From Macrocystis pyrifera (Eukaryota; Sar; Phaeophyceae; Laminariales; Laminariaceae), in NCBI GenBank assembly GCA_031763025.1, contig JASSKH010000009.1, positions 2,356,001-2,420,000 on the forward strand: DNA of 64,000 bases, in the 5' to 3' direction. This document shows, piece after piece, positions 6,088-64,000 of this stretch; the stretch's first letter is position 1; each line of letters begins with the position of its first letter. Below the pieces are notes generated by a model. That model searched no databases. It saw only the letters and a program-made list of their open reading frames with translations, and was not told where the DNA came from. Position numbers and translations under genes: made by a program.

Positions 6088-9000
6088 TCAACTTCGGTCG
6101 GTCGTGCCGGCCTCGAGCCGCCAAGCCGAAGGGTCCCATTTGCTCAACGTCTCCAGCACCACGTCGGCACCGGCCTCAACAAACGGCCCTTTGTCTAATC
6201 GCTGGTCGGGAACCGCAACAATGAACATGCCGGCAGCCTTCGCCGATCGCACCCCCGCCAGGGCGTCTTCGAAAGCGAGACACTCTCGAGGATCTAGACC
6301 CATACGTCTTGCGGCGGCGAGATAAATGTCTGGTGCAGGCTTGCCCAGTAGTACCTGCGGGTGGTGCATGAGTGCAAACCGGGGGAAAATAGAAAATATG
6401 ATGAGGCACGGTATGCGTGTACCTGAAAATAAGCTATCTCGGTACCACACACCTATTTTCGTCATCTAGAAGGGGGTGTGCTGAAATAAAACCAAGTAAA
6501 ATGAAAGTTGATACGGTATGGTACCCGAAAACAAAATATACTAAAACCAAGTAAAATGAAAGTTGATACGGTGGGGTAACAGGAAACAAATCCCGCTCCG
6601 ACGCTCCTATTTCCGAAACTTAGACCGGGGAGGGGGGGGGGGGTTACTCGATATCATGCATGGCCGTAGTCGTATGACCATAGACCCTCGCATCTCTACA
6701 ATGCCGGGACGGAGCACGTCGGGTTTTCACCGACCAGGCAGACATTGCTTGCGGAGGGCGCCGTGAGGTATATCTGTAATAAAAGCGCAATACGGAGTTC
6801 AAATCTCTCCAACGCCCTTCTTGCCTTTTGTCCTGAAAGTCATTGAAATAGTGCAAGTATACACCTGAAAGTCATGGTACACACTTTCAGGCAAGAAGCG
6901 CCCTAATACCTCCTGCTCGGGGCAGTGATCACTAGAGGAATTGCAACCCTTGAGTAAATCCGAGGTCCCGTCTTAACAGTCAAGGGAGCCTGGATCGTGC
7001 TTGCATTGGAGATACACCCTAATCACTGAGCTAACAGCCAGAGCTGACTGTTGCTCAGTGGTTAGGGTGTATTGCTGACTGTTAGTTCTGTGGTTAGGGT
7101 GTATAATCTAATACACATGAAGGGTGAGCTGCATCCTACTAAGAACCGCCTGTGAGGCGGGCTTGCATATGGATGACATGTAAGGCCGACTTGCATATGG
7201 ATGACAGCTTCAATAGCTTGATATATTTTCCGGTGTGGCCACTTCCAGAGACAGCAATGGGGGTGTATTATGTATCTGCCACGTGGGTGCCTTACCATAA
7301 ACACTGCCAGGTATACGTGATACGATAATTCCCCTTGTGCGGAGTAAAGGGTCTCCACCCCGCAAAAACGATATACACTCGATCGCCAGCTGTGACCGAC
7401 CGCCAAAAAAAAAACAACAAAAACGGTGCCCGGATTGTCTAGCTCACGTGGTGAGCGGCATGTTTTACAGCGTCGTTGCCAACCGACGCCAACCCAACCG
7501 GCATATAATCTATTGGGGGGGGGCGAAAACAAAAATATCCCGGCACCACGCTCCTATTTCAGAAACTTAGCCCGGGGGAGGGGGGGGGGGGTGTACCAAA
7601 AACAACTGACAAACTTGCGATTTATGTAGAAAAAATCCCATATTACTAGTACTCTTAGTATGTTTTGTTCTCGGGACATGGACGCGAGTGTGGTTTTGAT
7701 TTTTTCTTGTCGCGTACAGATATTTTTGCGGGCCGGCAGAATCAGGAGACGTTACTATTTGGTAGGTGCTTATCAGTGGGAAACGTGGTGCTCTACTTAT
7801 CGTCGAACTTATATTTTGGAGACTAAGAAAAATCCGAGCGGGGCGTGAAGGATGAGAACGGTCCGCTTGTTACATCGTACCGGAGTACTTCGAAGCTCAT
7901 CATGCGGAAATGCGACCTACCGTTGCTACCTCTACTACCTGGTACATTGGTGCTAATGATCTATGTTACCCGTGCATGTGCATTGTAGGAATGCGAGGCT
8001 CTATGGTCCTTCGACTACGGTTATGCTGGACATGAGTACCCCTCATCCCCTACCGTTCCGGGGGTCAGTGGTGTGCCCCAGGTATATAGTACGCCATTCC
8101 CCACTCCATACGTAGATCCTCTTCATACTGCAGCTCGACAGTACAGTAGTGCACGTTCTTCGAAAAAATAGTCCAAACACACATAGCCTACCTCGGGGTC
8201 GTCTCCAGTGACGATGCACTTCATGCGTTCGAAGAGCCCCGAGTGATTTAGTCGTTTGAGGCTCACCGCCTTTGACGAGCTCGAGGTCGCGATGCCCTAT
8301 AACCGTTTCATGCATCCAAAGTTGACAGCGGGGGGTGTGGAGGGGTGTGGGGGGGCGTACTCATTGTTTGCCTGCCTTGGTCATTTTACCATTGACCACG
8401 CATCGAGGGGGGGGCGTACTCGGTATCATGCATGGCCGTAACCGTACGACCATAGACCCTCGCATCCCTACAATGCCGGGGCGGAGCACGTCGGGTTTTC
8501 ACCGACCAGGCAGACATTGCTTGCACCAAGCGCGAAGCGCCGGCAGGTGGTCGGCGAGTCGCACGAAGGGTGAGCTGCATCCTACTAAGAACCGCTTGTG
8601 AGGCGGACTTGCATGTGAATGACAGTGTAAATGAGCGGGGGGGGGGGGGGGGGGGTGTGTGCTCAGTATCATGCATGGCCGTAGTCGTATGATCATAAAC
8701 CCTCGCATCCCTGCAATGCAGGGACGGAGCACATCGGGTTTTCACCGACCAGGCATACATTGCTTGCACCAAGCGTGAAGGGACGTGAGGTGTGGCTCGA
8801 GGAGCTCAGCCTTGCATTTGCTCGGGTCGCGGCAGCCCACTTTTCCCACCTGGGGAATGCCCATGTCCTGTAGACTCGCCGTGACCGCCTCTGCGCCATC
8901 GCACTTCTCCACTTTAGCGCTCATTTCGTGGTAGTCGTGCCCCACCTCTGCTGCTAGGTCCTCCGGGGATAATAGACCTTCCAAGCACAGCTCTGTCGCG

Positions 9001-10742: not shown

Positions 10743-13060
10743 GCTGACTGTGTACGGCCTTGAGCCAGCAGAGGTGATCTGGTGGTGGTGGGGTTAAAGG
10801 AGCTCTCCCATACCTTGTACGTGCTCCAGACCAATACAAGCAACAAGAAGAGACGAAAAAAGGAGCGTTATTCCTCACTATTTTACTACGTATTTTACTT
10901 GCTGTGAGGCGGGCTGTGGATTGTCATTAATTTACCATGGTGGTGTGTGGCCTATGGCCAGACTATACTAAAGGGTAGATCAAAGGCTTGCGTTCGATAC
11001 GACCGTACCAGGTACTAGGTATATGGGAAACCGAACGTCCGTGGCCGCTTTGATGGAATGCCCGCCTTTGAAAGCGGGATGCCAAGATGTTAAGGCTTCT
11101 GGCGCCCCAGCAAAGATGAGACTACAGATCAAGAGCAAATGTGCCATATGCACCCCTTTCGAACTGAACCCGCGTTTTAGGGGACAAACTTCTTGATCAA
11201 TGTAGGGTGGTCGCAGCAATAAACGTAAGACACCACCCCAAAGCGAAGGAGCGCTCAAGTCTGCTCTTCTCGGTCGTCATTGTTTTCCTCTACTCATACG
11301 GGTACAGTTTAATTAAGATGCTTACGTCCCATAAGGGTTGATGTTGCGTACGTACATGAGATCGGTCTTTTCGGGCGCGCCCGTTTTCTGGCCCTGTTAT
11401 ACTGGTTTCAGTATACGGGGGTGGTCAAACCTCGGTTCCACTTACCGCAACGACGATAGATAGTATATTTGTTTGGGAGCTTGTTATCCTACTGAGTAAG
11501 TCCTCATCGCCATCTAGCGCGTACAGAGCAATCCTGAAAAGGGAACTATGTGCTCTGAACGAAAAATCCAGCGCTGGCGCGTTGTCTCGATCTTATTAAC
11601 GAGGATTATTTTTCAGATTTTTTTTTTTTCGGTTCTTTTCGGTTTTTTCCTAAATGAAAATACCGAAATATTGGGAAAATACTGATAAAAACGAAAAACA
11701 CTGCTCGTTAATATCGACCTTATGGCGCACGCATTTCTCCACGAGGAGCGGCAATAAGGAATCAATCACGTAGATGGCGAGGAAGCATGTTGGAACGAAG
11801 CGCCATGGGGGGCAAGGGGGTGTACTCGATATAATGCATGTCCGCAGTCATATAGAACTACTTAATAGATATATCACTCTCTGAACGTGCTCGGTTGGTA
11901 CATCCCTGGCCTCTCAGAGCTCGCACTTGAGAGCCGCCTCCTCTTAATACTTGCCGGCCGGACCTTTCCAGCGGGTCTTTGTTTTCTCCATCTCTCTTGG
12001 CACTTTCGATCATTTCTTCCTTTTTTCTTATTTCGCTTCGTGTGCGTGCGTGTACTCCGAGCACGGCGCCGCGGGTGTCAGCGGGTGCTGGCGCGTAGAG
12101 GGGGGGTTGTAAGGACGGTCGCCGCTTTCGTGCCTAGGCGTCGCGTGTGCATCGAGACACATGGGATGCATCAATGGGCTCTGTCTGGCCTCCATTCGTG
12201 ATTTTTGATGGAATACGTACGAGCAATTAAGGGTCGTTCGGGATTGTAAGATAATATTCAAGCGATGCTCATTTTTGCGACCGGGCTGAAATCATAGAGG
12301 CAGGTACCCAGTCTGAGCACCAATATTGTCGAGCTGGCGAATGACGGCCACGGTGAGCACCGAGCTTCACCCCAGGCGGCCGACGGGGCTGACTGTGGCA
12401 GAGATTGAGGAAAGCTTTACCCGGACCGAATCGGTGGCGAGGTGTTCGCGAGCGGGGCGGGCGGCGTACAAGGCTGAGAGAGCTCTGTTTTTTTTTTTTT
12501 TTTTTCTTCTTGACCGGGGTGTAATAATGTAATAAGGTGTTCCAATCAGGCAGGAAATTATTACACGAGAGGGGACGGGGATTTTTCTTCGGTCCGAATT
12601 TTTCGGTTTCATTTTCATTGTTTTTGCGGTTCTGCTGTGCCGTGCTGTGCTTTATCTTTCGTACATAATGAGTACAGACATAAGAGCATATCGAAAGAAG
12701 AAAATAAGTACCCTACCTGGGGTATGTACGTACGTACGACATGTGAGCGAGCGTAGCGGAAAACCGTCCGCGACGCGAAGCGCATGTGGCGTCCGAGCTG
12801 TTTTCTCCTGAAGCATGGCGGCGGGACTCTTAGCACTATCGAGTCGCCAGTTTGCAACTACAATCAATGATGAAAAAAACTATATTTTATTATTCAATCA
12901 AGGACCTCTCTCTGCTTTGCATAATTTGATGTACTTTTCCTTCCTGAGCGAGCGTAGCGGGAGGCATAGGCCGCCCGCGGAGCGAAGACCTTTGTATATA
13001 TGACCATAGACCCTCGCATCCCTACAATGCCGAGACGGAGCACGTCGGGTTTGCATGGGG
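10743..13060. other. Intergenic, repeat scraps, no gene supported
   Basis: No domain-bearing ORF. Two minus-strand fragments of the poly(C)-tailed SINE-like family occur at about 11810-11855 and 12993-13060. A GC-rich open stretch at about 12326-12480 has coding-like composition, but I do not recognise it. T-rich tracts lie at about 11610-11660 and 12485-12510. The string GAGCGAGCGTAGCGG occurs twice (about 12745 and 12947). Confidence 0.4.
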
Positions 13061-32315: not shown

Positions 32316-32347
<32 letters not shown>

Positions 32348-35300: not shown

Positions 35301-38300
35301 GGGCGTCTGTCGAGGTGAGGGAAGCGCGGTCGTCTTTTTCATCCTGGTGTTTCATTTGTCCCGATAAAAAATAGGACGGTTCGCCGGCACTAGCTCTGGA
35401 TATGCCAGCGTCACCGCGTACGGCAGGGTCCTTTGTGCTTTCGATCAAACGACCTTAAGAACGGCGCGAGGCTCTCGTCGCGTTGTTTGTGGTATGTAAG
35501 CGGCACCGCGGCGCGGATGACGACCTCCAGAAAAAACTAAAGCGCTTCCCGATCTTTACCCTCAACCCTCGTTCTGCCCTCGTTCCACGCTCTTCCGGAT
35601 GCTTCGCCCTGTGTGCTACTACTCTTCCAGGAGCTGTGCTCGAAGGACCACCCGCCCTCTATTGGCCACGACGAGATCGATGCCATCCTTCGACACCTGC
35701 TGCAGTCCGCGGAAGAGGAGGACGAGGCGGAGGGACAGGGGATTCCGACTCCTACACCAAATCTTTCCGACCTACCGGCCGCGCTGTCGGGGGGGGCAGC
35801 GGGGACAGCTGCCGGCCACCAGAACGACCGAGGTGGGGCATCCGCAGGTTCAAGCGCCGCCGACGGCCTAGATGAACAAGGCCAGACCTTGAAATGGACG
35901 CAAGTGTATCCCAGGGAACCAGGCCCGGACGACTCGACGACGGTGGAAGAAGGAGCGGGGCGGTCATCCGAGGCTGGCATTCTCCCGGTGCCCAGATCCC
36001 CGTTTGATGGAGCGAGCAAAGCCTGGCACCCTGAGGCGCGCTCGACCTCCTTGCCGAAGCGGGAGGAGGAAGAGGCGGGAGAACGCGACGAGAGCTTGTG
36101 GGCGTGTGCGGGGCGAGGGGGGGCGCCGATAGGGCGCTTGGTTTCGTTGCTGTCTCTCAGCGTCGCCAACTGTGGTGAGACGCGAGATGCGCGCAGGCAT
36201 TGTTACACGTTGGGTGTTACGCCTGAGCTTTGTGCCCCCCCCAGTTTTTATGCGGGGAGAACCTCCTCTCCGCACAAGGGGATTGATCGTATCACGTAGT
36301 GTGTATATGGTAGGACACCCACGAGGCAGCTACATAGTACACCCATTGCTGTCTCTGGAAGTGACCACACCAGTGAAATCAATTCATTGACGCTGTCATC
36401 CATATGCAAGAAAATCCGCCTCAGAAGCGGTCCTTTGTAGGATGCATCTCACCCTTTATGCGGCTCGCCCAACACCTCACGGCGCTTCGCGCTTGGTGCA
36501 CGCAACGTCTGCCTGATCGGTGAAAACCCGACATGCTCCATCCCGGCATTGTAGGGATACGAGGGTCTATGGTCATACGACTACGGCCATGCATGAAAAT
36601 GAGTACACACACACACCCTAAGCAGAGGGACTTTTGTTTTTTTTGTTGGTAGTGGGGTGCATCATAGCTCACCATTACGTGCGAATTGTGCGGTGTTGCT
36701 CTGTTGACAGCAACCCGCACGCATCAGGGACCCCCTGTCCCGCTGCGTATCTCGCTGGTGTTGCCACCTGGATTGTTATCGAAACCTTCCTGCCTCCTTT
36801 TTTTGTTGGTGGGTATACGCCTCTGAACCCCGCCGCGCTCGGCGCGTCGACCTTCCTCCCTTCCCCAGACGACCTTGGGTCGATGTCGCTGCTGTGGATG
36901 TCTTTCGTGCGGGACGTGCGTCTCCTATGGGAGGATGGAGCCGCCATCCCAAGAATGGTAAGTTGCGGGGGATCAACCAGCTGTCGGTTACCGAGGCATG
37001 TAGTGGTGCGCCGGCGACTGTCGGCTCACCTAGCACGCGCGCTATTACGGGGGAGCATAGTAATCAGAATCAAATATAGCTTGTAAACACATTGGGGGAT
37101 ACATAGTCTTCGGGTCCGTCGTGAGGTTTGATTGCCATAGTCCCCTCGCAGTGGCAGCGAAAGACGCCTTCCTCGGACGGCTTCGACGGCTCCAACGTTA
37201 ATTTCTACCGTCCTTTACCTTGTCTTGGGTGGACGGATGTTGTCGCGCCGGCATCCATTTTCAGCTGGGCAGTTTCGGACGCGCTCCTCTACCCCGGTCG
37301 CCGCGCCACAGCTGACAGTAACCAAAAGTGCACGGTGGATGTTATGATGGACCTGTTTTTGGGAGCTGTCCGACGTCGCGGCCAGGTTTTCCCGACCTGA
37401 TAACTCCAGCTTGTCGCGTAAAACGCTAGCTCATCTCCCTGCGACCCTCGTACCATTGGCCTTATCTACCTGCCGCCTCCCTTGACGCCACCCACAGCGA
37501 GCCATGCCTGAGGTCGACGGCATCAGCATGTTCGATCGCCGGGTGGGCTGCACAGGACAGAACTTGAGTGTGGCGGCTCAGCTGCGAGGCAGAGAAGCGC
37601 GCGACTGCGCTCCGAGCCGCGGCGGGTTGCGCTCAAGCCAGGGCATGCAGCAGGGACGTGGTTTCGGCGTGAGCGATGGCTGGAGATTCAGGTGTGATGC
37701 GCCCCCTTTACGGCCGCGCTATCTCGCTTTTTCAGGGTGGGAGGTAACCCGATCGTTTTCGGGTACAAGAGTGAGGCTTGGCTGAAAGGCCGCTGAAAAT
37801 TTACCCTTTTCTTCGACGCAGTAGTGGCAGAGTTGTACGTAGCGCTCGCCCCCCCCTGTCTTATGCAAACATGCTATTAATAGTGCGGGGGGGCTACTGC
37901 TGTACGCAGAACCCACGATGGACCCAAAAGCCCTTTATCCTCCTATGTTTACGCGCCTTATTCGGTTCTGATTACGGCTATTACTATGTTTCCACGCAAG
38001 ACGTACACAGGAGACCGCGGTTTGATCCCTTGACTGGCCGACTCTACACTAAAACTAGTTTGTTGAGATCAACGGAAAGACCTTGACGCGCCAAAAACAC
38101 GACCGGTTTCCAACCATGTTGTGATATGGAGTAGCGATCCGTCCGTCCGGTCCTCGACAACGCTGGCCAATTTGTTTGTGCTCCCGCCGCCTTTGATGAC
38201 GCGGTGTTTCGTTTCGGGCTGAAATTTTGCGCCGCAGCGCGGAGGCGGGTCGGTTGCTCCCGGACACGCGGATGTGCCTGATTTGGCAAAAGCTGCAGAT

Positions 38301-41300
38301 GCTGAACTGCTGCCGCCCGGAGGGGGGAAAGGCGGCTATGGCCTCCGCCGCCGCTGCCACTGCCGCCGTCGCTCTGAGCGCTGCGGAGCCCTTCTCGCCG
38401 CACCCGTCGCTGGGTGCCGCGGGAGGGGGAGGAGACGAGGACGAGGAAGACACGCTGTTTTTCGACACGCGAGAGTATTGCCAAACCTCGGATTACGAAA
38501 CTTGTGGTGGTGGTGGTAGCAGTGATCGTGATCGAGATCGTGATCGTGGTGGCGATGGTAGCTGTGGAGACGACGACCCCGACAGCTTCGCAAGCGACGG
38601 CGGTGGTGGTCGCAGTGACGGTGTTGGTGGTATCGGGGGTGTGGGTGATGATGGTGGCAAGGAGGGCGGCGCTAACGACGACGACGACCTCTTGAGAGGG
38701 GAAGAGGGGGCCCCGACTGGACTCTCGAGCGTCGCCGTGGCCCCGTCGGATCTGCCTGCGCCGCCACCGGTCGTAGGGGGTGGGTTGCCGCCGACGGTAG
38801 CGGCAGCAGACGCCGTCACGGTAATCCCCGATGTCGACGGCGACAGCAGCGTGATTGACCGCCATGACGGCGATGACAGCGATGCCGAGGACGCGCAGCA
38901 AGGTAAGGAGTGTTCGGTATTGTTATCACCAGAAGCGGCAGAAGTAGCGGTAGGAGTGACAGGAGCTGCGAAAACAGCAGAAGCAGCAGAGGCAGCAGAA
39001 GCGGTGGAAGCGGTGGAAGCAGCGGAAGCAGCAGAAGCGGCAAGAGCGGCAGGCGTGGCGAAATCAGCAGGCGCGGCAGACGCTTCAGATGAAGCGGGCG
39101 AAGCCGAATCGACGGAGCTTCCAGCACCGGCGGGGATGAGGGCGACGACCCAACAGATGCTTGATGCGGCTGCCACATCAACAGCAGCAGCAGGAGCAGC
39201 AGCAGGTGAAGCAGAACCCCGCGATCACCATAACACCACGAACAGCGCATGCTTCAACGGCGAGAACATGGGTGAGGCACAGAGTCTCCAAAGCTTGGAC
39301 ATTGTGACGGGCGGTAGTCCCGATCAAGACAGCGATATCGCTGGCTTGCCCTTCCCCCAGGCGCGGAGGGAAGGGCAGATCCCAGCAGCGGCGGCGGCGG
39401 CGGCGGCGGTAGCGACTCCCGCTGTTGCTTCGCCGGTCGCGGTGGCGAGACGATTGGCGGCCCAGGGTCCGCCCCGTCTGCTGCGCACGGGCGCCGCTGT
39501 GCGGGTGCCGAGGCTGCCGTCGAGCGGTCCGGTGACGGGGGACATGCTCGAGCAGCAGACGGGGCAGGCCGGCGTCTATCGCTGGAGGGAGGTGCTTGTA
39601 GCAGATATGGAGGCGTTTAGGCGAGAGAACGGCTCGGCGGCGGCCTTCGCGGACTTCGTGCGGTGGTACCGACCGGAGTGTTGGCAGGTGAGGAGGGGGG
39701 GAGGGGTGGCGGGGGGGGAGGCAGGGGGGGCTTGTACTCGATATCATGTACGGCGGTAGTCGTATGACCACATACCCTCGCATCCCTACATTGCCGGGAC
39801 GGAGCACATCGGGTTTTCACCGACCAGGCAGACATTGCTTGCACCAAGCGCGAAGCGCCGTAAGATGTTGGACGAGTCGCATGAAGGGTGAGCTGTATCT
39901 TACTAAGAACCGCTTACGAGGTGTGCTTGCATGTGGATGACAGCGTCAATGAGATAATTTAATTTCCGGTGTGGCCACTTCCAGAGACAGCAATGGGAGT
40001 ACTGTGCATCTGCCTCGTGGGTGTCCTGCCATAAACACTACGTGATACGATCTTCCCCCTCGCGCGGAGAAAAGGTTCTCCACCCCGCACAAACGGTGCC
40101 CTGGTTGTCCAGCTCAAGTAGTGAGCGGCATGTTTTACCATGTCGTTGCCAACCCAACCTAAATATAATATAGGCAGGGGCAGGGAGGGGGGAGAAGGGA
40201 GGGAAGGGAGGGGGAGGGGGCAGAGGGAGGGGTGGAGGGGGGGGGGAGGGGGGAGACGAGGGGCGTGGAGGGGAAGTGGGGGAGGAGGGGGGGGGGAGCA
40301 AAGTAGGTGCACTCATGCCATGCATGCCCGTAGTCTTACGCCCATAGACCTGGGGAGGAGCTGTTTTTTGTGTGCTGAGTGCGCTGGTTACTGGATCGCT
40401 TGTTGGGGAATGCATTCACGACATGGGTAGGCGTATTTATCGGGGCCTCTTTTGTGCGCGATGCTGGGAGAGGGGGTGGGTGGGGGGTGTTACGGGCCGG
40501 TGACTGGGCTAGGTTTTGTTTCCGAGAGGGCACGCGTGCGACCGACTCGGTATTCGGGTGGCTGTTTTACGTTCCACGCTGAAGGTGGCTCTTGTTATTC
40601 TTCTTGGAATGAAAATCGAGCGCTGACAAAAATAACGATGGCACGCATGCACCCCCCTGCGCTGCAAACTGAACCCTCTCTACGGCATTTTGGGACCCGA
40701 TATGCGTTTTACAACATTCTACACTACGTTCGAAAAAATAAAGACCGTATGGATTTCATATTATTATACATGTATGGTCATTATATTTTGGAATATAGTG
40801 TGTACAGCTCCTGAGTTACAGTGGTTGAGGAATCCCCCCCAGCGCCGTCACTGGGAAATGTTTGGGCTTGAAAGTGCACCCTCCCCCTACCGCAGGCACG
40901 CCTCCTTACCCTCCTTACCCCCCCCCCCCCCCCCCCCCCCTACACACCGCCACTCCTCAGGGGCTGATGCTCGACGGGGAGTGGGTGCAAGCGTCAGACG
41001 ATCGAGCGGGAGGAGCTGCGGAGGACGACCTGCGGTTGGCGTGGCCAGGTCAAGGCCAGGTGCGGCACACATAGCGTGCACACGAGGACACACGTTGACC
41101 TTGCCGCCGTCGGGGGCGGAGTTGAGGAGCGAGGGGGGCGTGGGGCGGGAGGCGGGGATCGGGAGCGGGGGCGGGGGTAGTGGCGGGAGCGGGGGCCGGG
41201 GGCGGGCCGGGCCGGTTGGCGGCGCTAAGGTCGCTTGAATGTAGCAGCCACATGTGACACTATATATCTTGGCCATGGCGGAAGTAAGCAAGTTGCATCG

Positions 41301-43493
41301 GCCGGTTGCCTGTGCCCGACGTGCTGCGCTTGCTACGTTCGGCTCTTTGTGCCGCGCAGAGCGCTCTCACTGTCGAGAGATGCATTCCTGCGTGGTAGAA
41401 GTTTTTTCGTTCGACTTTTACCCCGGCTGCTTCGTGTGTTTTTGCCCTGGGCTACCTGCGCGAGACGCTCTTTCGACGCCAAGCCGATCCCCGATACATC
41501 TCAAGAAACCGGCGCTGTGCATGGATGGTGGGCAATCGGAGAGGGCACGCATCAGTTCCAATGATGGCTCTGACGCACCTTATCCCTCTTTTTTTTGTGT
41601 ATGTGGTATCCCTCCCGCACAGGTGCTGTGGCGACCGGCGGACGAAGCCCGCAGCTGTCCGAGTCCGGGAGTCACACGCCCCTCACGTCCCGCAGTAGTC
41701 CCTTCGCCCGCTTCCGCCCTGACCCTAGCGACTTGGCGCTCGTGCTGGAGCGATACTGGCGCCGCGATGGAGAAAGAGCGGGCGCCCTCGCCCCTGTTCT
41801 GCCGCGTCAAGGAAGGAGAGAAGGTGAGGGTGGTGATGATGGTGGTGGTGGTGGTGGTGGTGGTGGCCTCGTTTTTTCAGGACGTTCGTCGGAGAAGCGA
41901 CCGTGGTCCTGTTCGGGCTGGCGCGTCCGGGCGCTGTTGCTTTCGATGGCGTGGGAAGGTTTAGATGCGGCAGCAGCGGAGGAGAGAGCACCACCAGTCG
42001 CGGCGGACACGGCGACTGTTTATAGTGCCGTCCTCCTTGACGGGACGTGACCGCGCCACGTGCAGTGTGTATGTATTGTGGGGTCGCGGGATCACAGGTG
42101 CGGGGTGCCCGTTTCTCTCTATAGCTTCGTGTCCTCCCGTATCTCCCTCCTTCATTGTGTGCCTCTTTACGTCTCTTGACTTATATTTTGTCCCTCTATG
42201 GAAATACATCTGTCTATCTATCTCCATATCTCTGCCTCCGTCTATCCCCATCCCCATCTCTCGCCATCTCCCTGCATATTCATCCATCTCTATGCCTTTT
42301 AAATGACCTCCTTGTCGTATCTGATTTTCTTTTGTTTCTCTCGCTTGCGTGCCCCTCACCCCCTTTCCCGCCCAGGCCCTGCACTACCTCGAGACGATCT
42401 CCCCGGGACCTCTGCTCGTGCAACTGCTCTCCTCTGTCCTGGGGCTGTCGGTTTTCATTTTGGAGGAGGCGTGCGCCTCCATCGATGGTCTGTCCGCAGC
42501 CAAGGTGAGATATGCAACGTAGCGGCTTGGAAACGACGCCAGCAAACTTCACGTTCACCCCCTGATCCATATTGCGATTTAGCCCGTAAATACGCGCGAA
42601 GACCTGGGCTTTTCATTCATTCAGCGATGGCTATAGATGAAGAATATGCCTGCGCTGAAAATATGTAGATCATGAAGCCGGAATCGGTTATCTACCAGAG
42701 GTGTGAAAGGTTTATTACCCTTCAAGTAACTATTATTAAGGGGGACCATAGTAAATCGGATCTGCGGTACACACAAAAAACCTACCAGGTATGTATTTGT
42801 CCATTTTTACGAAGAATATTCGGTCCTATTTACTATGGTCTCCCGTGATTGGGGGGAACATAGCGAAAGCGTAAGTTAGCTACATTCGATGAAAATCGAC
42901 GAGCAGAGGGAGTGCTGAACCCTATGCGCGATAAAAATGAAGGCGCGTACCGGGGGGAAAGGACGACACCTTCGACCACGGCTTGTCCAGGAGAAGATAG
43001 CTGAAGGTAAAAATCTCCTACGAGTGAAGCTGGAGAGTGAAAGTGATGAATAAAAAAATATATACATATACTTTTACATAGGTACTCAGAACTCAGAACG
43101 CAACATGGTGTGTAAACATTGGGTACCACCTGGTATTATCAGTAGAAAGGTAGAAAACAAGACATTTTTCTCGGCCCATGAAAGCACCGCAGGTTCGCTC
43201 GCCCCTCCTCCGCTTTGTGGGTCGCGTCACCCAGAGGGCGCTGGCGGGTAATGAGCTCGATTATTTGCCTTCACGCTGTTTCCCGTTCGGAAATGGGACA
43301 CATGGCTTTTGGGCTCAGTGTTGGTCCTGATACTATCCCCCCCCCCCCCCCCCCCAGTAATGCTCGGTGCAAGCAATGTCTGCCTGGTCGGTGAAAACCC
43401 GACGTGCTCCGTCCCGGCATTGTAGAGATGCGAGGGTCTATGGTCATACGACTACGGCCATGCATGATAATGAGTACATCTCTCCTATCGAGT

Positions 43494-43553
<60 letters not shown>

Positions 43554-46500
43554 GTAATGTTGCATGCACGAATTTCATTTACAGCAGATTTGCCCGAAAA
43601 AACGCGGGTGCGTGTATAAAAAGGTTAACGTGTCTCCCTGCCCTCCACACCCCGCGGTCGTGTCAGCACGTCATCGACCAAGCGAGGCGGAAAGTGACGG
43701 AGGCTGTAGACCTCCTCGCCTCTGCAGCAGGGGAAGACGGTAGCACCGACCAGGCGGCCCCCGCGACGGCGACGGCAGGGGGGGGCGATGGGGCGCAACG
43801 GCGGGCCACTCCGCAGGGGGCCGGCAGCAGGTGCGACGCCGTCGGGTCGCAAAAAACATTGGAGCGACGGGTTAAAATTGACACACACGACACGTTTGTT
43901 ATATGTACCCCTCTGTCCACGATACGTTCGTTATATGTACCACTCTGTACCGAAATATAATCAACTTTTTTTATTGAATATTAATATACAAAAGGTTCTT
44001 ATATTTAGGTACAGAGCGTTTCGTGAAGTTGTGGTGAGCTTACCCCTTCTAGGACAGCCTTCCCGTTTTGGAAACAAATTACTGGGCATAGAGCCCGATT
44101 ATGTGTTTCGGTACAGTGCAGTACTACGAGTACAAGGGTTGAGCTTCACTTTTACCGTTCCGCCGAAGCATTGAAGAAGGAGGAAAAAAATGGTTTAGGA
44201 GTTTTTGTGGCGTAGACCTCGGCGTGGGGTTTTCATGCTGTGCGGCGGTTTATGGTTGCGCCTATCGATTGGTATCGATGTTGAGGGCGACCTTGAGCGT
44301 GCCGAAGTTTTTTCGGCCGGGGATGGTGGCGGTATGATAGCCGTGCCCCCCCCCCCCCCCCCCCGCCCCCCCTCCTCTCGCTCCTTGTCTGTGCGGCCGC
44401 GACCGCTCGCTCGCTTTTGCCTCCCTGCTCGAGTGAGACGTTGTTGCTGTAGATGTGTACCATCCACTGAGAGGATTCTTCTGGCGGAGATCGCGGAAAT
44501 CGTGGACGGACTCGCGATCTACCCTTTTGTTTCTGCTGCCTCGGACCACGCGAAGGCCTCTGTCGCCGCCGTCTTCTGTGTCATAAGTCGTGACTTGGTA
44601 GAAGTGCCGACGGTACAAGGGCCGCTGTCGTGCCATTCAGTGTGTGTGAGAGATTTCGGGTCACCCTGTCTATGCGAACCCTTATCTCCCCCCATCTACC
44701 ACCGCAGTAAAACTTTGGCCGCCCCGGACGTACGAGACACCTCTGTCGTCATCCACTGCGGCTTGAGCCTTTATAGCTGCGGTCCCCGTTTTTTGGACGA
44801 ACCACTCATGTTGAGTACTATTACAGGGGGCCATAGTTAATAGGACCTGCGGTACGCACAAGAACCTATATATTTACCTCTTTTTACTAACAGTATTTGG
44901 TCCTATTTACTGTGGTTCCCCGTAGTAATAGTTGTTACCGAAACCGGGCTGCGGTCCTAAAAAAGGGTTGCACTTTTTCAGCCCGAACATTTCTGACTGA
45001 CAGGGAAGCCACCCCGTCTAATGTGTACCAGGTACGTGTGTTCAAATGACGGTACTCGTACCAGGTATTCGTTGCATACATACCTACACAGCCCGTAGGA
45101 TTCTTGTATTGGCCTTGGCTTGAAACGTGCCAACAGCGCGCACCGTAATGGCAGGGGGTAGCGTACTCGATATCGGGCATGGCTGTAGTCGTATGGCCTA
45201 CGAGGCCCTCGCATCCCTGCAATGCCGGGACGGAGCGCGTCGGGTGGGGGGGGGCTGTGCCTACTGTATGACCCCGAAACTGAGTTACGACTAGGGAGGG
45301 AGCAGGAAAAATAAAAAGGCCGAGTATAAGAAATGGAGTGAAAAACGAAAAGGAGAAAAAAATTCCAGTTGTTCTCAAAGTCGGATGGTGGGTGACTTAC
45401 TATTACGGGGGACCATACGTAGTAAATAGGACCAAAAATTGTAAGTAAAAACAGGACAATATATAGGTTTTTGTGTGTACCGCAGGTCCTATTTACTATG
45501 GTCCCCCGTAATAACAGTATGGAGATACTCAAGTGAGGACCTTTACCGTAGCACACGCGACATAACTTGCTCACGCTTACCTTATAAATACAAGCGCCTG
45601 CATTATCGTGTGGCTTATTATGATATCCCGCCTCCCCTGTATTGTATACCTGGTACATATATATATATGTATAGCTTGGGTTGGCGTCGGTTGGCGACGA
45701 CGCTGTGAAACACGCCTCTCACTGCGTGAGCGAGACAACCAGGGTACCGTGTTTTTTGTGTTTTTTTTGAGCGGTCACCACGGCTGGCGGTCGAGTTATA
45801 GATAATTCTTTGTGCGGGGAGAGCCTTAACTCCGCACAAGCGGGGCGATCGTATCACGTAGTGTGTACCTGATATATGGTAAGGCACCCACCAGGCAGTC
45901 ACATAGTAAACCCATTGCTGTCTCTGGAAGTGATCGCACCAAGTAAATAAATCTATTTATTGACGCTGTTATCCATATGTAAGAAAGTCCGCCTCAAAAG
46001 CGGTTCTTGGCAAGATGCAGCCCACCCTTCATGCGACTAGCCAGATACCTCACGGCGGTTCGTGCTTGGTGCAAGCAATGTCTGCCTGGTCGGTGAAGAC
46101 CCGACCTGCTCTGTCCCGGCATGGTAGGGATACGAGGAGGGTCTATGATCGTACGACTACGGCCATGCATGATACTGAGTACACCCCCGCTCCCCCCTTC
46201 CTACCCAATTCTCCCACATTTGGGGGACAGACGACTTACTTGGAGTTAGAGTACGCTATGTTTTGCAGTGGAGAAGATGAAAGTAACAGCTCTTCTCCCC
46301 CTTCCCCTACACCGTGTGCAAACGCCTCTCTCACCGTCCAGCGTTGTTGCTGCAGATATAAACTGGGCCACTGCTACCACCAGAAACACCTCTAAACCAC
46401 CATCCAATATGTATCTGTCCGGAAGGAAAATAAGGCGTTTGGATTACGTACGATGCTCGCATGAGTATCGAACACGTTTTGACTATTCCCGGCGAGAGTG

Positions 46501-48998: not shown

Positions 48999-49107
48999 TA
49001 TTACGGGGGTCCATAGTTAACGGGACCAAATTTTGTTAGTAAAAATAGGCAAATATATAGGTTTTTGTGTACACCACAGACCCTGTTAACTATGGACCCC
49101 CGTAATA
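48999..49107 (-). mobile_element. TATTACGGGGG MITE, copy 2
   Basis: 109 bp, almost identical to copy 1 but inverted. Both flanks carry GTAGCCAACG, so a short segment of flanking DNA is directly repeated around the element. Confidence 0.9.
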
Positions 49108-49198
49108 GTAGCCAACGATGCTGCCTTGGTCGAACGGCAAGCTTGTTGCAGTTTTGGACAGGTAGTTTTCGTACGTACGTTTTTTTTTTCTAGATTTC

Positions 49199-49365
49199 CC
49201 CCCCCCCCCGGTACTCTGTTTCGAAAGGGATGCGTGGTCAATGCTCAACTAACTAAGGCAAGGAAGAAATGAGTACCCCCCACCCCCCCCCCCTCCAGAT
49301 GCTCCGTCTCGAAGGGGGTGCGTGGTCAATGGTTAAATGACAAAGGCAAACAATATATTAGTACG
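49199..49365 (+). mobile_element. Two tandem LINE 3' modules separated by poly(C)
   Basis: C run 49199-49210; module 1 (TTTCGAAAGGGATGCGTGGT ... AAATGAGTAC) to 49277; C-rich run to 49293; module 2 (GCTCCGTCTCGAAGGGGGTG ... TTAGTACG) to 49365 without a C tail. Only the last about 70 bp of the LINE is present in each. Confidence 0.8.
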
Positions 49366-49539
49366 AGTGCGCGCGCCTGTCCCGTTTCGACAGAGTCATT
49401 CCTAACGAACGCGAAAAAACAGAACAAAACGGATATCTCGCGCAACCGAAGAAGTGACACCCCCAACTTGCCCTCCATCTCTGGCATCCCCGTGTTGTTT
49501 TGTGCTGATACTGAGAGAAACGTTTCACACGTCGGACAG

Positions 49540-49690
49540 ATATCATCTACAGATCATCTACAGATAGTCCATCAACAGATAGATCATATAGATCCTTACC
49601 TGCCATTATATGATGCTGTGCAGTGTATGTATAGTACACAGATCCACCCCGGGAAACATATCCTAGATTATGCAGATTGTGCAGCTCCTG
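49540..49690. repeat. Dispersed GATC-rich repeat copy with short minisatellite
   Basis: ACAGATCATCTACAGATAG units followed by CCTTACCTGCC and CACAGATCCACCCCGGG, the same order as at 63617-63930. About 100 bp of recognisable similarity. Confidence 0.6.
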
Positions 49691-49759
49691 TAGATCGTAA
49701 CAGATCCGGAACAGCAGGAGATGGGAAGGGAACGGGAAACTCGTGAAACAGTACAAATG

Positions 49760-50668
49760 ACAGCAGCTAAAAAAAATCTAAGAGACTAGCAATACAGTAT
49801 TAAGAGCAGAACTGGGAATGCACCCACTCAAGACAAATAGAGACATGACAAAGTTGGACTGGTAATATAAAGTAAGGAACATTCCAAAAAAGAGGTTGCC
49901 AGCCATAGTTGATAGAGCTGTATGGGAGAAAGTATCAAAAGGGCAAGCTGGAATAAGGTGGGATGACCCAGTTGAGAAAGTATGGAAGGATACAGGGGGA
50001 AACCAAGAAGAGATGATGTCCGCCTGGAAGTTTGGGAGGTACAAGGCAGAAGCAAAAGAAAGGGTAGAAAGAAGAGAAAGACTAGCGCTAAGAAACAAGG
50101 TGGAATCGGAAAAACACTTTGAGATATACAGGGGATTGAGGGAAGGAATAGGAATGAAAACGTATTTGCATGGCCCAATGGACATCGCGAAAACGCTGAA
50201 ACTGCGCTTTCGTGTAGGGGACCTGGACCTGCCAGAAAGGGAAGAAGTATACCAGTAGCCGGGAAGAGGAAGTAGATGCACAGATGTGCCCGTGTGGCAA
50301 AGCAATAGAGAGTAGAACTCACATAGTAGGAGATTGTGAATTATACAAGGAGGAACGGGATGTGTTAGAATCGGAGATGAGGGAAATAGACGAATGTGAC
50401 ATGGAGGAGTTTGATACAATGAATAGCAGCGAGAAAACGATCGCTATCCTCGAAGATAGATGGTGGCCGCAGGAGGCCAAACAGGAAGGGGATAAGATTA
50501 GCAAAAAGAGTCTATGTAATATATGGAAACAACGTAATGAGCGCCCAATTGTTGGAGGTGTCTCCATTAGGAGTAGGAACGGTGCTCCGTCTCGAAAGGG
50601 ATGCGTGGTCAATGGTCAAATGACTAAGGCAAGCAACAAGAGAGTACGCCCCCCCCCCCCCCCCCCCC
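49760..50668 (+). mobile_element. Degenerate non-LTR retrotransposon, 3' end with poly(C)
   Basis: C-terminal part of a LINE-type ORF2, broken by stops (TAA after KLDW near 49861; TAG at about 50256). Recognisable residues: RLPAIVDRAVWEKVSKGQAG, MDIAKTLKLRFRVGDLDLPE, then CPCGKAIESRTHIVGDCELY, the C-x-C-x8-H-x4-C zinc knuckle usual at LINE ORF2 C-termini, and RWWPQEAKQEGDKISKKSLC. The reading frame runs through the 3' module (NGAPSRKGCVVNGQMTKASN) into a pure C run at 50650-50668. In this copy the consensus stop is mutated, so the frame enters poly-Pro. The reverse transcriptase and endonuclease domains are missing (5' truncation). Confidence 0.8.
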
Positions 50669-51054
50669 ACCAGGAACATGAGCTAGACCGCAGCAATATC
50701 CGGAATTTATCTGCCTTCTGCAAAATCGAGATCGTGGAGTGGGGGAATCGATGATTTTGTTCGACACATGCTGTATAAGGGTTTCGGCGTATCGACATCG
50801 AGATTGTATAGTACCAGGGTATCGATTTATAACATTTCTTCTTTTGTCGGTATCGTATGATTAAATAGTGTCGAAGCCGATTCTCGTTAGGATGTTCATC
50901 ACTACCTTGCCTTGGTGCTACGTACTCATCAGCCATTTAGAGGTTGCACCGCTTACGTTACAGTACACGCGCGCGCGCGGACAACAGTACTGCCGGCGGT
51001 AGGAATTGGGAGCTGCACTACAACAGCTCTGTGTTTTTCAAGAGCCCCTCCCCA

Positions 51055-52275: not shown

Positions 52276-52706
52276 GCCTTATCGCTAGGAATGTCCCCTT
52301 ATGTTTTTGTTAGCACGTGGTGGTCTACTGGTTGTCTTCGGCGCGAACAGAGTATACCAGGTATTTTAATACAGCAGTAGTATGGTGCCGCCGGAGGTGG
52401 ACTGCCCACTACCCAACACGACGAACACGATTGTGGCAAATGGACCAACGCAGTCAATGGGAACACGCTCCAAGTCTCATCCTAAACCAGCGCAAAACCA
52501 CCGAAACTGAAAGACTGTTTGATTTTCTCCCGTGATCGTGAAGGCGTGAGAAACCGGAATATCGTGCCGTTGGCGGCTCTCTTGGACGTTTCTACCGATA
52601 ATACATCCGGGAGTCTTTTTACCGTGGTGTAGGTGGTTGGTTTGATTTTTCACCCCCACTTCTGTCGCATGTTATGAAGACCCCTCCCCTCTACTATATT
52701 ATATGT

Positions 52707-53218
52707 AGGTTGGCGTCGGTTTGCAACGCCACTGTAAAATATGCCGCTCACTACGTGAGCTAGACAACTAGGGTACCGTTTTTGTTTTTTTTTTGGTTAC
52801 GGTCGGTCACAGCTGACGATCGAGTTAGATCATTTGTGCGGGGTGGAGAACCTCTACTCCGCACAAGAGGAATGCTCGTATCACGTATAGTGTTTATGGC
52901 AAGGCACCCACGAGGCAATTACGTAGTACCCCCACTGCTGTCTCTGGAAGTGGCTACACCGGAAAATAAATTAACTCATTGAAGCTGTCATCCGTATGCA
53001 AGCCCGCCTCAGAAGCGGTTCTTAGTTTGTTGTAGGATGCAGCTCACCCTTCGTGCGACTCGCCGAACACCTCACGGTGCTTTGCGCTTGGTGCAAGCAA
53101 TGTCTGGTAGTCGGTGAAAATCCGACGTGCTCCGTCCGGCATTGTAGGGATGCGAGGGTCTGTGGTCATACGACTACGGTCATGCATGATATCGAGTACA
53201 CCCCCCCCCCCCCCCCCC
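52707..53218 (+). mobile_element. Full-length SINE-like copy with poly(C) tail
   Basis: About 490 bp plus an 18-19-nt C run. 5' end GGTTGGCGTCGGTTTGCAAC in an AT-rich site (CTACTATATTATATGTA), same internal hairpins as 45678-46199, 3' end CATGCATGATATCGAGTACA then C run. Best example together with 45678-46199. Confidence 0.88.
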
Positions 53219-53440
53219 ACGGTGCAAGCAACGTCTGCCTGCGTGGTCGGTGAAAACCCGACGTGCTCCGTCCCTGCATTGCAGGGATGCGACAGTCTGT
53301 GGCCAAACAACTACGGCCATGCATGACATGAGTACACGCCCGACCCAATGCGATCCATGTACCAAACACCCGCCCATGTTTTGTCAGGCGTTTCCACCCC
53401 ATCCCACGACTACGGCCGTGCATGACATAGGTACCCCCCC
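53219..53440 (+). mobile_element. Head-to-tail SINE-like 3' modules
   Basis: Directly after the C tail of the previous copy, GGTGCAAGCAACGTCTGCCT restarts and ends CATGACATGAGTACACGCCC at about 53340. A second short piece (CGACTACGGCCGTGCATGAC then ATAGGTAC and C run) follows at 53406-53448. Another C run is at 53508-53528. Confidence 0.75.
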
Positions 53441-55683
53441 CCCCTCCCCCTCTCGCAATGCGATCCAGCTGTGAAACACCCGCCCACGGTATGGCGTCCT
53501 AACCCCCTCCCCCCCCCCCCCCCCCCCCTCAATGTAATCCAGGTGCCAAACACCCGCCCCCTTCTTCAGCCGCAACGTCGGCCGTGGTCAGATGGGTGCT
53601 TACCCCACCCCCTCCACCAGGATGTTTGCCAAGACCAACGGCCGGCACTTGAGGGTAGCTCTTTCCCTGTGCGAATCGGAGATCTGAACATACACCTGAT
53701 CCTTTCCCGTCGGGCAGATTGTTTGGGGTTTTGTACATAGACGGAGGCGCGTGTTTTTTTTTTCCACGTTTGTTTTCGTATCTGCTGTGTTGCGGGCGGG
53801 GGGGGGGGGGGGGGGGGTGGCACTTTGGTTAGAGAGGAAAAAAGTGGAATGTTTTGAGGATGTGGGCGAATGTACGTGTGGTGAAATTCTGAAGCTCGTG
53901 CGTTTGTTTTTCCTCTTTTCTTCCGCCACTTTTTCAGGCGTTTTTTTGTACGTACTGCTGTCTTCGTATATGTGTGTCACGAGTCAACCAGAGGCTATAT
54001 ATACATCATTTTTTTTTTAGTATGAACAACTAAAAAAAAAGCTATCAGCTGTGAGATTCGAGGATGTCGTCGAGACTCATTTTCGCAAGCTGTGTGTAGT
54101 CATGCTAGTGGTACTTCGATTGCGCGTGCTTGAGGTGCAACTGTCTCTACAGGAACTCGCGCAGCAGGATGTTTGTGCTGTGATTGTCGTCGATTTTTTG
54201 TATGCGTTGGGTGATTTGGTGATTTTGGAGAACTGTTACGTATGAATCTCGGTCAGCGGTCGTAGAATCGGCTTCAGCCAGCTTGGAAGGAGTCCCTACT
54301 TTTTGGCGGGGTGTAACTTGGAAAAAAAAACAAAAAAAAAAACTCGGCACTCGCTCTCCTTAGTAAATGATACCAGGTATACTCGTAAGCAGCAGATGGC
54401 TTCACCCTCGATACAAGGTGACATATTGTAGTGTCTAATAATTGAAGCATTTCTTAGCGTCATTCCACACGAACGCAACAAATAGCTCGATTCGTGGCAT
54501 GCATGTACTTGCAAGTTGGTGTGGTATCACGACAAATGTGTAAAAAAAACAGTCTTTTTTGTCACGAAAAATCTTGCTGACATCACGTTTTTTATTGATT
54601 TTTTCCAAAACTTTTCATTTCTGTCACGGTTCGTGACCGTGACGATAAATAAATGTCATGACTGACGAAAATATCACGTCATTTTTGTGACGGTTCGACA
54701 CATACGTTATTTATGTTGTTACTTAGTACTAACGATCCTTTTTAGAGGGCGTGGAAGGAGTTGAAGCTGCGTCCCGCGCACAGGAGGAGTATATACATAC
54801 ATACCGGTCTGTCACCTGCCAGGGTAATATGCAGGGACATATTGTATATTAAAATTAAGTACAAGAGGTCTCTATATTTAGGTACAGAGTGGTATGTATT
54901 AATAGTACCATGTAGGAGCATTTATTTGCTGCTGGATACGTAACGGAATCAAAACGGAACCAATAAACAACTACAGTAGAATACCACTGTACATCAAGTA
55001 TGTACGCGACAGACAAGCACTTCAGAAATTGGGAGTTGATCGTTTCTCGCTCTCCGCTTTTTTAACACGAAAAAACGTCAGAGAATAATTTCGTCCAACA
55101 ACTGAGAGAAGTGTAGGACACACCCCACGTCGTGTTGTACGCAAGTGTAAACAGTTGATCCTTGCCCCTCCCCCCCCAAAAAATCGCAAGTGATGCAGCG
55201 TGCTGCCGTAATATCGAAGTATTTTTTCTTGCAGCGGCTGGTCCGCAAAAAATGCTCACGCCCAAGCTAAAACATGGATCATACGTAGCGAAAACATGCA
55301 CTCCTCAAAAAGAGTACACAATGTTTTGTTTTTTTTTTTATCTTCCTTTTCCCCGCAGGCTAATTATTGGGTGCGCTTGCTCTCGTTCGTACATTCTTGT
55401 TCCTTCCTTCCCCCAACATACCTCCCTCCCCTCTGTCATTCCTGCTGCGGCAAACAAAAAAAACACCCTTATTTTTCTGTGCGCTCCCGACAATAGTGTA
55501 CACCCACACACTGCATGCAGCGACACAAAACCCATTACTTTTTCTCTGCTACAGCCGCGCCACCTTTCTGCCTCTTCAGGTCAAAACTAGATACAAGCGG
55601 CCGCAAGCACGCACGCAACGCATACATCGCGCCGCATGTATGATGCGATGGTTGACGGCGCTCTTTGCCCCTTTTGACGGCTA
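53441..55683. other. Intergenic, homopolymers and AT-rich DNA
   Basis: G run at about 53800-53817; AT-rich segment 54540-54720 with a palindrome GTCACGGTTCGTGACCGTGA. Open frames on both strands show no domain I recognise. One stretch, 53604 to about 53700 on minus, looks exonic but is unassigned. Confidence 0.4.
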
Positions 55684-56165
55684 GTACATTGTGTCAACAG
55701 ATACCTTGACCGGCCGTCAAGGACCTCCCAATATCAAAACTAGGATACTGAGTCAACAGAGACCTTTTGACGGGCCGTGCCGTCAAGAATCTCCCACGAC
55801 CAAAACTAGTATCTTGAGTCAACAGAGCCTTTGACGAGGCGTCAAGGACCTCCTAACACTAAAACTAGAATATCGAGTCAGCAGAGACCTTGACGGGCCG
55901 TAAAGGAACTCTCAATACTAAAAGTAGTACAGTAAGTCAACAGACACCGCGCCGTCAAGGACCTCCCAATACCAAATATAGTATATTGAGTCAACAGAGA
56001 CCTTGACGGCCCGTCAAGGAACTCTCGATACTAAAAGTATTACATTGAGTCAACAGAGACCTTGACGGGGGCCGTCAAGGAACTCCCAATACTAAAAGTA
56101 GTATAATAAGTCAAGAAAGAGACCTTAACGGGCCAAGATTAGACTGTCAACCGTCAACCGTCATA
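55684..56165. repeat. Minisatellite, about 60-bp unit, palindromic core
   Basis: Eight units beginning GTCAACAGAGACC at 55693, 55752, 55818, 55877, 55937, 55990, 56049 and 56110. Each has the self-complementary CCTTGACGG-CCGTCAAGG, then a conserved CTCCCAATACTAAAA-type spacer. Units differ mostly around the palindrome centre. Confidence 0.9.
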
Positions 56166-57225: not shown

Positions 57226-63016
<5,791 letters not shown>

Positions 63017-63594: not shown

Positions 63595-64000
63595 TTCGTG
63601 TACATTGTTTCACACGTCGGCCAGACAGATAGATCATCTACAGACATATCACCTACAGATAGATCATCTACAGATAGATCATCTACAGATAGATCATCTA
63701 CAGATAGATCATCTACAGATAGATCATCTACAGACAGATCATGCACAGATAGATCATCTACAGACATATCACCTACAGATATATCATCTACAGATAGATC
63801 ATCTACAGATAGATCATCTACAGACAGATCATCTACAGATAGATCATCTACAGGCAGATCACCTAGACCCTTACCTGCCGCTATGACATGTTTGTGCAGG
63901 ATCTGTACAGCACACAGATCCGACCTGGCCACATGATCCACTGCTCAAGATACTACAAATCAGGAATAGATGATCTATCTGCGCTGAAAGACCTAAATCA
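63595..64000. repeat. 15-bp minisatellite within GATC-rich repeat
   Basis: AGATAGATCATCTAC repeated about 17 times from 63628 to 63870 with variants (ACAGACATATCACCT, ACAGACAGATCATGC). Followed by CCTTACCTGCCGCTATGAC, TGTGCAGGATCTGTACAGC and other family strings to the window edge. It is open in all frames but is not a gene. Confidence 0.85.

What the first reader, a model, noticed from the sequence alone, without database searches (positions are those of the whole stretch)
45678..46199. About 510-bp SINE-like family sharing its 3' end with the poly(C) LINE
At least 12 copies or pieces occur here on both strands, none coding. Their last about 75 bp keep the LINE module's skeleton in order: GTGCTCCGTC, GGGATGCG, ATGGTCA, GACTA-GGC, GAGTAC, then C run. 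Sharing a 3' tail with a partner LINE is how many SINEs recruit reverse transcriptase; here even the odd poly(C) tail is shared.
Basis: partly seen in the sequence, partly recalled or inferred. Interest (0 to 1): 0.9.

Follow-up and report, generated by a model that had tools for sequence, protein, structure and literature searches.

The report
SINE-like element borrowing a LINE tail
A short non-coding jumping element in what is probably a brown-alga genome carries nearly the same tail as a longer, enzyme-coding jumping element and probably uses it to borrow that element's copying machinery; a pair of this kind was reported in Ectocarpus in 2025, and what is added here is a candidate RNA fold of the tail and signs of insertion into runs of C.

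Summary
The roughly 515-bp family has 16 stretches in the window, probably 15 insertions; 14 reach the 3' end and 11 are 5'-truncated. Its last 72 nt align to the LINE tail above all 5000 shuffles (172 against at most 124; C run excluded). The LINE is real: its C-terminal ORF has 970 protein relatives, and two longer ones carry a reverse transcriptase domain. The shared tail is the end of the LINE ORF. A fold predicted from the LINE tail alone keeps 20 of 20 pairs in the short element, with differences mostly at unpaired positions (p=1e-4), but only 12 of those pairs are in the short element's own best fold, and covariation is not above shuffles. Of 18 non-nested 5' ends, 8 lie just behind a C run (0.8% background), and two insertions have duplications starting with the C run, so it looks like target as much as tail. 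No Pol III promoter was found, so strict SINE status is unproven. Ectocarpus RTEX-N1 (2025) is of the same kind. The own-genome search did not complete.

The parts
45656..46199 (+). S1, long copy of the short family (the finding); body to 46182, then C-rich run; exact 5' end uncertain (45656-45678)
46106..46182 (+). 3' module shared with the LINE in S1 (TGCTC..GAGTAC)
52694..53218 (+). S2, long copy with C18
53220..53345 (+). S10, 5'-truncated copy directly behind the C run of S2
53406..53447 (+). S16, tail fragment; a 30-bp direct repeat lies on both sides (three copies in all, perhaps a tandem array)
39717..40173 (-). S4, long copy with internal deletion of the T-run region
40302..40350 (-). 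S14, weak tail fragment upstream of S4
36229..36618 (+). S3, 5'-truncated copy; homology to other copies from 36247, preceded by C8
7111..7513 (-). S5, 5' part of a copy (model 2-363)
6628..6773 (-). S9, 3' part (model 368-520); with S5 probably one copy split by the insert 6774-7110
7531..7592 (-). 5' member of the direct repeat flanking S5+S9, beginning with C12 (7580-7591)
6584..6644 (-). 3' member of the direct repeat flanking S5+S9, beginning with C12 (6632-6643)
8643..8805 (-). S7, 5'-truncated copy with C19
8406..8635 (-). S6, 5'-truncated copy directly behind the C run of S7
43337..43362 (+). C19 then AGTAATG before S8 (5' duplication, read by eye)
43359..43488 (+). S8, 5'-truncated copy (exact start 43359-43364)
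43495..43559 (+). C57 then AAGTAATG after S8 (tail fused to 3' duplication, read by eye)
45151..45245 (-). S11, tail fragment preceded by C9
12999..13055 (-). S12, fragment preceded by C8, 3'-truncated
7980..8050 (+). S13, diverged tail fragment
11808..11853 (-). S15, weak tail fragment
49722..50668 (+). L1, 5'-truncated LINE copy: C-terminal ORF in two frames (change near 50245), tail, C20; 5' end uncertain (protein matches begin at 49638-49725); its own stop codon is lost
50582..50647 (+). 3' module of the LINE (end of its ORF) in L1
51038..51423 (+). L4, 5'-truncated LINE copy
49213..49294 (+). L2, tail-only LINE copy behind C12
49300..49371 (+). L3, tail-only LINE copy behind the C run of L2
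56959..57042 (-). L5, tail-only LINE copy, C12 upstream and C20 downstream
60097..60178 (-). L6, tail-only LINE copy directly behind a 456-nt run of C (98% match, 60176-60631)
8338..8404 (-). L7, LINE tail directly behind the C run of S6

Best explanation
The short family is a non-autonomous retroelement moved in trans by a non-LTR retrotransposon (LINE) of the same genome. Shown: both end in a homologous 64-72-nt module followed by C; in the LINE the module is the last 20 codons of the ORF plus the stop codon, so there is almost no 3' UTR; copies are 3'-anchored and mostly 5'-truncated. Inferred: the LINE's enzyme recognises the module as RNA (a closing helix GUGCUC/GAGUAC next to the C run and two hairpins), the G strand of a C/G tract is nicked, and the G-ended primer pairs with the C-ended RNA to start target-primed reverse transcription. 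That would make it a C/G counterpart of the poly(A)/T-tract priming of L1 (recalled, not tested). New copies land in the C runs of older ones, which would explain the head-to-tail arrays S7-S6-L7, S2-S10 and L2-L3.
For: 3' alignment above all 5000 shuffles. LINE identity: 970 protein hits; P0151 and P0152 (of 8 longer hits) carry RVT_1; P0151 matches R2 and LINE-1 chains. The LINE reading frame is broken in the short family (5-nt and 1-nt indels) yet the words persist, so the constraint there is not coding. Fold predicted from the LINE tail alone: paired positions 39 of 40 identical, unpaired 14 of 24, Fisher p=1.1e-4, 20 of 20 pairs still pairable. C run of 8 or more within 15 nt of the 5' end in 8 of 18 non-nested copies (12 of 22 all) against 0.8% of positions; G run of 6 or more in 0 of 22. 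Flanking repeats that begin with the C run: S5+S9 (41 of 48 columns identical, C12 in both members) and S8 (C19AGTAATG and C57AAGTAATG). C-rich continuation in relatives: of 13 LINE proteins that match the end motif and go on, 2 are internal matches and 10 of the other 11 have 3 or more Pro in the next 14 residues; 16 of 25 short-family translations with the TAMH-type motif (30 examined) have PP after it.
Against: Covariation is not above shuffles on any of five measures, and fold stability is ordinary (z -0.90, -0.47, -1.47). The short family's own best fold holds only 12 of the 20 LINE pairs; its closing helix has pair probability 0.09-0.15, and the LINE fold costs it -11.6 against -22.4 kcal/mol. 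16 of 18 insertion units show no flanking repeat by the alignment test; S8's short one was seen by eye and is not significant there; S16's may be a tandem array. Nine C/G runs of 12 or more lie outside the elements, as do 6 of A/T, so long runs exist here for other reasons too. The endonuclease was not seen and activity was not tested.
Confidence: 0.78

Rival explanations
1. The short family is an internally deleted LINE (LINE 5' end plus LINE 3' end, Pol II transcribed) rather than a SINE with a Pol III small-RNA head.
For: No Pol III boxes beyond background and internal T runs up to 10; no Rfam or tRNA match. Such elements are known for RTE LINEs: MAR4, RTESINE1, Bov-A2 and RTE1-N1_LA are listed with a '5'-end' of RTE or BovB as head (PMC3747384, passages).
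Against: None of 8 LINE proteins (RT and C-terminal parts only) matches the body in sense; one weak antisense match (P0158, E 6.8e-4 in a 524-nt search, 28% over 47) is taken as chance. A LINE 5' end could not be compared because no full-length LINE DNA was reached.
Confidence: 0.4
2. The C run is a true RNA-templated or slippage-made tail, and the C runs at 5' ends come from template jumping (the enzyme copies the C tail of a second RNA, then stops), not from target choice.
For: C follows the module in both families and in relatives; arrays of copies in one orientation fit jumping too. The C9 between S5 and its upstream repeat has no clear counterpart in the downstream repeat.
Against: The flanking repeats of S5+S9 and S8 begin with the C run itself, and C/G tracts without elements exist that could serve as targets.
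Confidence: 0.3
3. The 515-bp sequence is only the 3' part of a second, longer autonomous LINE.
For: 11 of 15 insertions are 5'-truncated.
Against: Four copies start at nearly the same 5' point, with differing flanks beyond; no LINE protein matches the body in sense (8 proteins).
Confidence: 0.08
4. A DNA transposon or simple tandem duplication spread the family.
For: Some copies lie head to tail.
Against: 5' ends vary while the 3' end is fixed, and the 3' end matches a LINE. Terminal inverted repeats were not searched for by a tool.
Confidence: 0.02

Closest known systems
RTEX-N1_Ec32 with RTEX-1/-2_Ec32 of Ectocarpus (PMC12477816; search listings and passages seen)
   Same: Brown alga; about 600-bp non-autonomous family with its 3' end conserved with autonomous LINEs; 'possible' SINE with 5' origin undetermined; more than 6000 copies there.
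   Different: The passages seen mention no C tail, C-tract target or RNA fold. An Ectocarpus relative of the LINE protein exists (P0158, 61% over 83%), but that record ends before the tail and its clade was not tested.
SINE/LINE pairs with a shared, stringently recognised 3' tail (for example tobacco TS SINE and an RTE-clade LINE; review PMC3747384, passages)
   Same: Short element with the LINE's 3' end, shared terminal repeat, stem-loop in several cases.
   Different: The terminal repeats in the passages seen are (TTG)n, (A)n, (CA)n, (CCAT)n and others, with no (C)n; here no Pol III head was found and the tail lies in the LINE ORF.
Mammalian L1/Alu
   Same: Homopolymer at the RNA 3' end and, by inference here, pairing with a matching target tract (recalled for L1).
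   Different: C/G instead of A/T, and a specific module is shared besides the homopolymer.

Membership tests
SINE (strict) | Short, non-coding, dispersed | tested here: met
   16 stretches on both strands, about 515 bp, no sense match to 8 LINE proteins
SINE (strict) | Internal Pol III promoter or small-RNA-derived head | tested here: not met
   Best A box 1-2 and B box 2-3 mismatches in four long copies, within the background of 300 random windows; T runs of 8-10 in three of four; no Rfam or tRNA hit. Upstream-type Pol III promoters were not tested
LINE-dependent non-autonomous element | 3' end shared with a partner LINE | tested here: met
   0 of 5000 shuffles reach the score
LINE-dependent non-autonomous element | Fixed 3' end with variable 5' truncation | tested here: met
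   14 of 15 insertions reach the 3' end, 11 of 15 are 5'-truncated
LINE-dependent non-autonomous element | Target-site duplications | tested here: inconclusive
   2 of 18 units by alignment (S5+S9; S16, maybe a tandem array), plus S8 by eye
LINE-dependent non-autonomous element | Shown to move with the LINE's enzyme | not testable with these tools
   Needs an assay
RTE-X LINE (partner) | Non-LTR reverse transcriptase | tested here: met
   RVT_1 in relatives P0151, P0152; R2 and LINE-1 chains matched by P0151; the window copies lack the RT domain
RTE-X LINE (partner) | RT tree position in RTE-X and an endonuclease domain | not tested
   No reference RT set or full-length ORF at hand; Pfam found RVT_1 only in P0151 and P0152
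RTEX-N1_Ec32 | Sequence similarity to that family | not testable with these tools
Stringent-type LINE tail | Conserved structured 3' RNA | tested here: inconclusive
   20 of 20 pairs still pairable; covariation not above shuffles; short family prefers another fold

The most novel reading that the evidence does not exclude
A LINE and its short partner in brown algae that insert into C/G homopolymer tracts by pairing a C-ended RNA with a G-ended primer, guided by an RNA structure that doubles as the end of the LINE's own coding sequence, so that copies stack in one another's C runs and seed new targets.
Probability: 0.45. Interest if true: 0.62.

Novelty: new member of a known kind. Interest (0 to 1): 0.45.

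Why it matters
It adds an example of a SINE-like family tied to a LINE in what is probably a brown alga, proposes which RNA pieces the enzyme reads, and offers a reason why C runs lie beside these repeats. If the C tract is the target, target choice and priming can be tested with simple G-tract substrates, and the dual coding and recognition role of the ORF end becomes a test case for constraint on two levels.

Tried and rejected
DNA transposon and plain tandem duplication: disfavoured (fixed 3' end, variable 5' end, LINE match). 3' end of another LINE: disfavoured by shared 5' starts. Rfam or tRNA head: nothing at the curated cut-off or by ARAGORN; on two long copies the only rows up to E 10 were chance-like (E 1.6 and 4.5, far below their cut-offs). 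Extra conservation of the LINE tail at protein level: mean entropy 0.89 in the tail against 1.06 upstream among 120 relatives, but some upstream windows are lower (0.67), so no claim is made. Covariation: not above shuffles. Duplications: a first version of the flank test (27 units) had a null contaminated by element tails and flagged S10 only through a tail fragment; the cleaned version is (18 units; S4 is in two of them; the one null pair above the hits is two overlapping flanks). DNA patterns found nothing in genome contigs or viral contigs; protein-guided scans found pattern matches (10 and 1) but no relatives. Literature for a C tail: searches found no paper; one search found 464, of which 12 titles and abstract starts were seen, none about such an element. 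That is only what these searches show.

Full report
Setting. The species was not determined. A LINE C-terminal ORF (50218-50670) has 970 protein hits; of the 120 listed, 119 are 'ena' records without a name and one is named, Sphacelaria rigidula (P0049, 67%). Longer relatives include another Sphacelaria protein and one of Ectocarpus, and relatives of a chance reading frame of the short family (30 hits) include Laminaria digitata (P0149). Sphacelaria and Laminaria digitata are brown algae. A brown alga is therefore likely, by inference.

The short family. A profile built from 11 seeds of this window finds 16 stretches of the family at E<=2e-4, 5 of them not seeds, and 3 LINE tails; 7 are on + and 9 on -. 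Four start at nearly the same 5' point, where pairwise matches between long copies also end; the others are cut at the 5' side. S5 and S9 cover adjacent model ranges and share one pair of flanking repeats, so I read them as one copy interrupted at 6774-7110. That gives 15 insertions: 14 reach the 3' end, 11 are 5'-truncated. None of 8 LINE proteins matches the body in sense. No tRNA or Rfam head was found, Pol III boxes are within background, and three of four long copies carry T runs of 8-10.

The LINE. L1 (49722-50668; 5' end uncertain) holds the C-terminal part of the protein in two frames. P0151 (655 aa) and P0152, two of 8 longer relatives, carry RVT_1; P0151 matches R2 and LINE-1 chains. 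L4 is a shorter copy and five copies are little more than the tail (all seven were seeds). The module is the last 20 codons of the ORF plus its stop: TGA inside TGAGTAC in 5 of the 7 copies, read directly from the sequence; L1 and L3 have lost it. Of 120 listed relatives 58 end at this point. Thirteen match the end motif and go on; two of these (P0049, P0071) are internal matches, and 10 of the other 11 are Pro-rich, as a C run would give.

Shared 3' end. With the C run removed, the consensus sequences align over 72 columns with score 172; 0 of 5000 dinucleotide shuffles reach it (max 124), and the same holds with a second scoring scheme (42 against max 31) and without the last 12 nt (147 against 125). 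The alignment lies at the 3' end of both. In the short family indels break the LINE frame, so the constraint there is not coding.

RNA fold. The minimum-energy fold of the LINE tail consensus has a closing helix, a GAAA hairpin and a second two-part hairpin. Projected on the short family, 20 of 20 pairs stay pairable; 39 of 40 paired and 14 of 24 unpaired positions are identical (Fisher p=1.1e-4). Against it: the short family's own best fold holds 12 of these 20 pairs, its closing helix is improbable (0.09-0.15), and the LINE fold is worse for it (-11.6 against -22.4 kcal/mol). On 15 tails (10 short, 5 LINE; the fragments S12-S16, L6 and L7 were left out) 92.6% of cells pair against 31-45% when slid, but five covariation measures do not exceed shuffles. 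Stability is not unusual. The fold is favoured, not proven.

C runs as target. Of 22 5' ends examined, 12 have a C run of 8 or more within 15 nt; of the 18 not nested in another copy, 8, against 0.8% of sampled positions (nominal binomial p 7e-13; the ends were defined by the same analysis, so take it as a guide). A G run of 6 or more occurs at none. S5+S9 is flanked by a direct repeat (41 of 48 columns identical; 62 nt at 85%) with C12 at the start of both members. S8 has C19AGTAATG before and C57AAGTAATG after, seen by eye and too short for the alignment test. S16 has a 30-bp repeat on both sides, which occurs three times and may be a tandem array. By the alignment test 16 of 18 units show nothing. 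C/G runs of 12 or more number 24 in the window (four are pieces of the one interrupted run at 60176-60631), 15 in or beside elements and 9 outside; A/T runs of that length number 6, all outside.

Mechanism. Module recognition followed by target-primed reverse transcription is inferred from known SINE/LINE pairs (PMC3747384, passages). The G-ended primer on a C-ended RNA is inferred from the flanking repeats that start in the C run. Template jumping remains a live rival for the arrays and for the 5' C runs.

Known or new. The Ectocarpus study (PMC12477816; passages) describes RTEX-N1_Ec32, about 600 bp, more than 6000 copies, 3' end conserved with RTEX-1 and -2, possibly a SINE with undetermined 5' origin. 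This finding is very probably of that kind, maybe the same family in another species, but the sequences could not be compared. The C-tract and fold observations were not in the passages I saw.

Noticed in passing
34139-34251, 42722-42849, 44819-44930, 45398-45513, 48999-49111, 61100-61224: Six copies of a roughly 115-bp element with long inverted ends (ATTACGGGGGACCATAGTAAATAGGACC and its complement, by eye); looks like a MITE, perhaps with TA duplication.
   Followed up: no
60176-60631: A G run of 456 nt (98% match) directly beside LINE tail L6.
   Followed up: partly
7043-7104: A 32-bp repeat resembling a tRNA D arm (TTAGCTCAGTGGTTAGGG; resemblance recalled) inside the insert that splits the short element.
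   Followed up: partly
55713-56134: Array of a 59-bp tandem unit, about 7 copies.
   Followed up: no
31998-32706 and 58552-59359: Two stretches 75% alike with CTG/GCA-type repeats, perhaps a gene family.
   Followed up: no
63625-63865: 15-bp tandem array, 16 copies, with related sequence at 49536-49590.
   Followed up: no
17486-17860 (-), 6091-6465 (-), 57229-57606 (-): Probable host-gene exons: DnaJ C-terminal domain, HAD hydrolase, SAP domain (Pfam).
   Followed up: partly
P0153: A 325-aa LINE relative is filed under a bacterial MAG (Parasphingorhabdus), perhaps algal contamination.
   Followed up: partly
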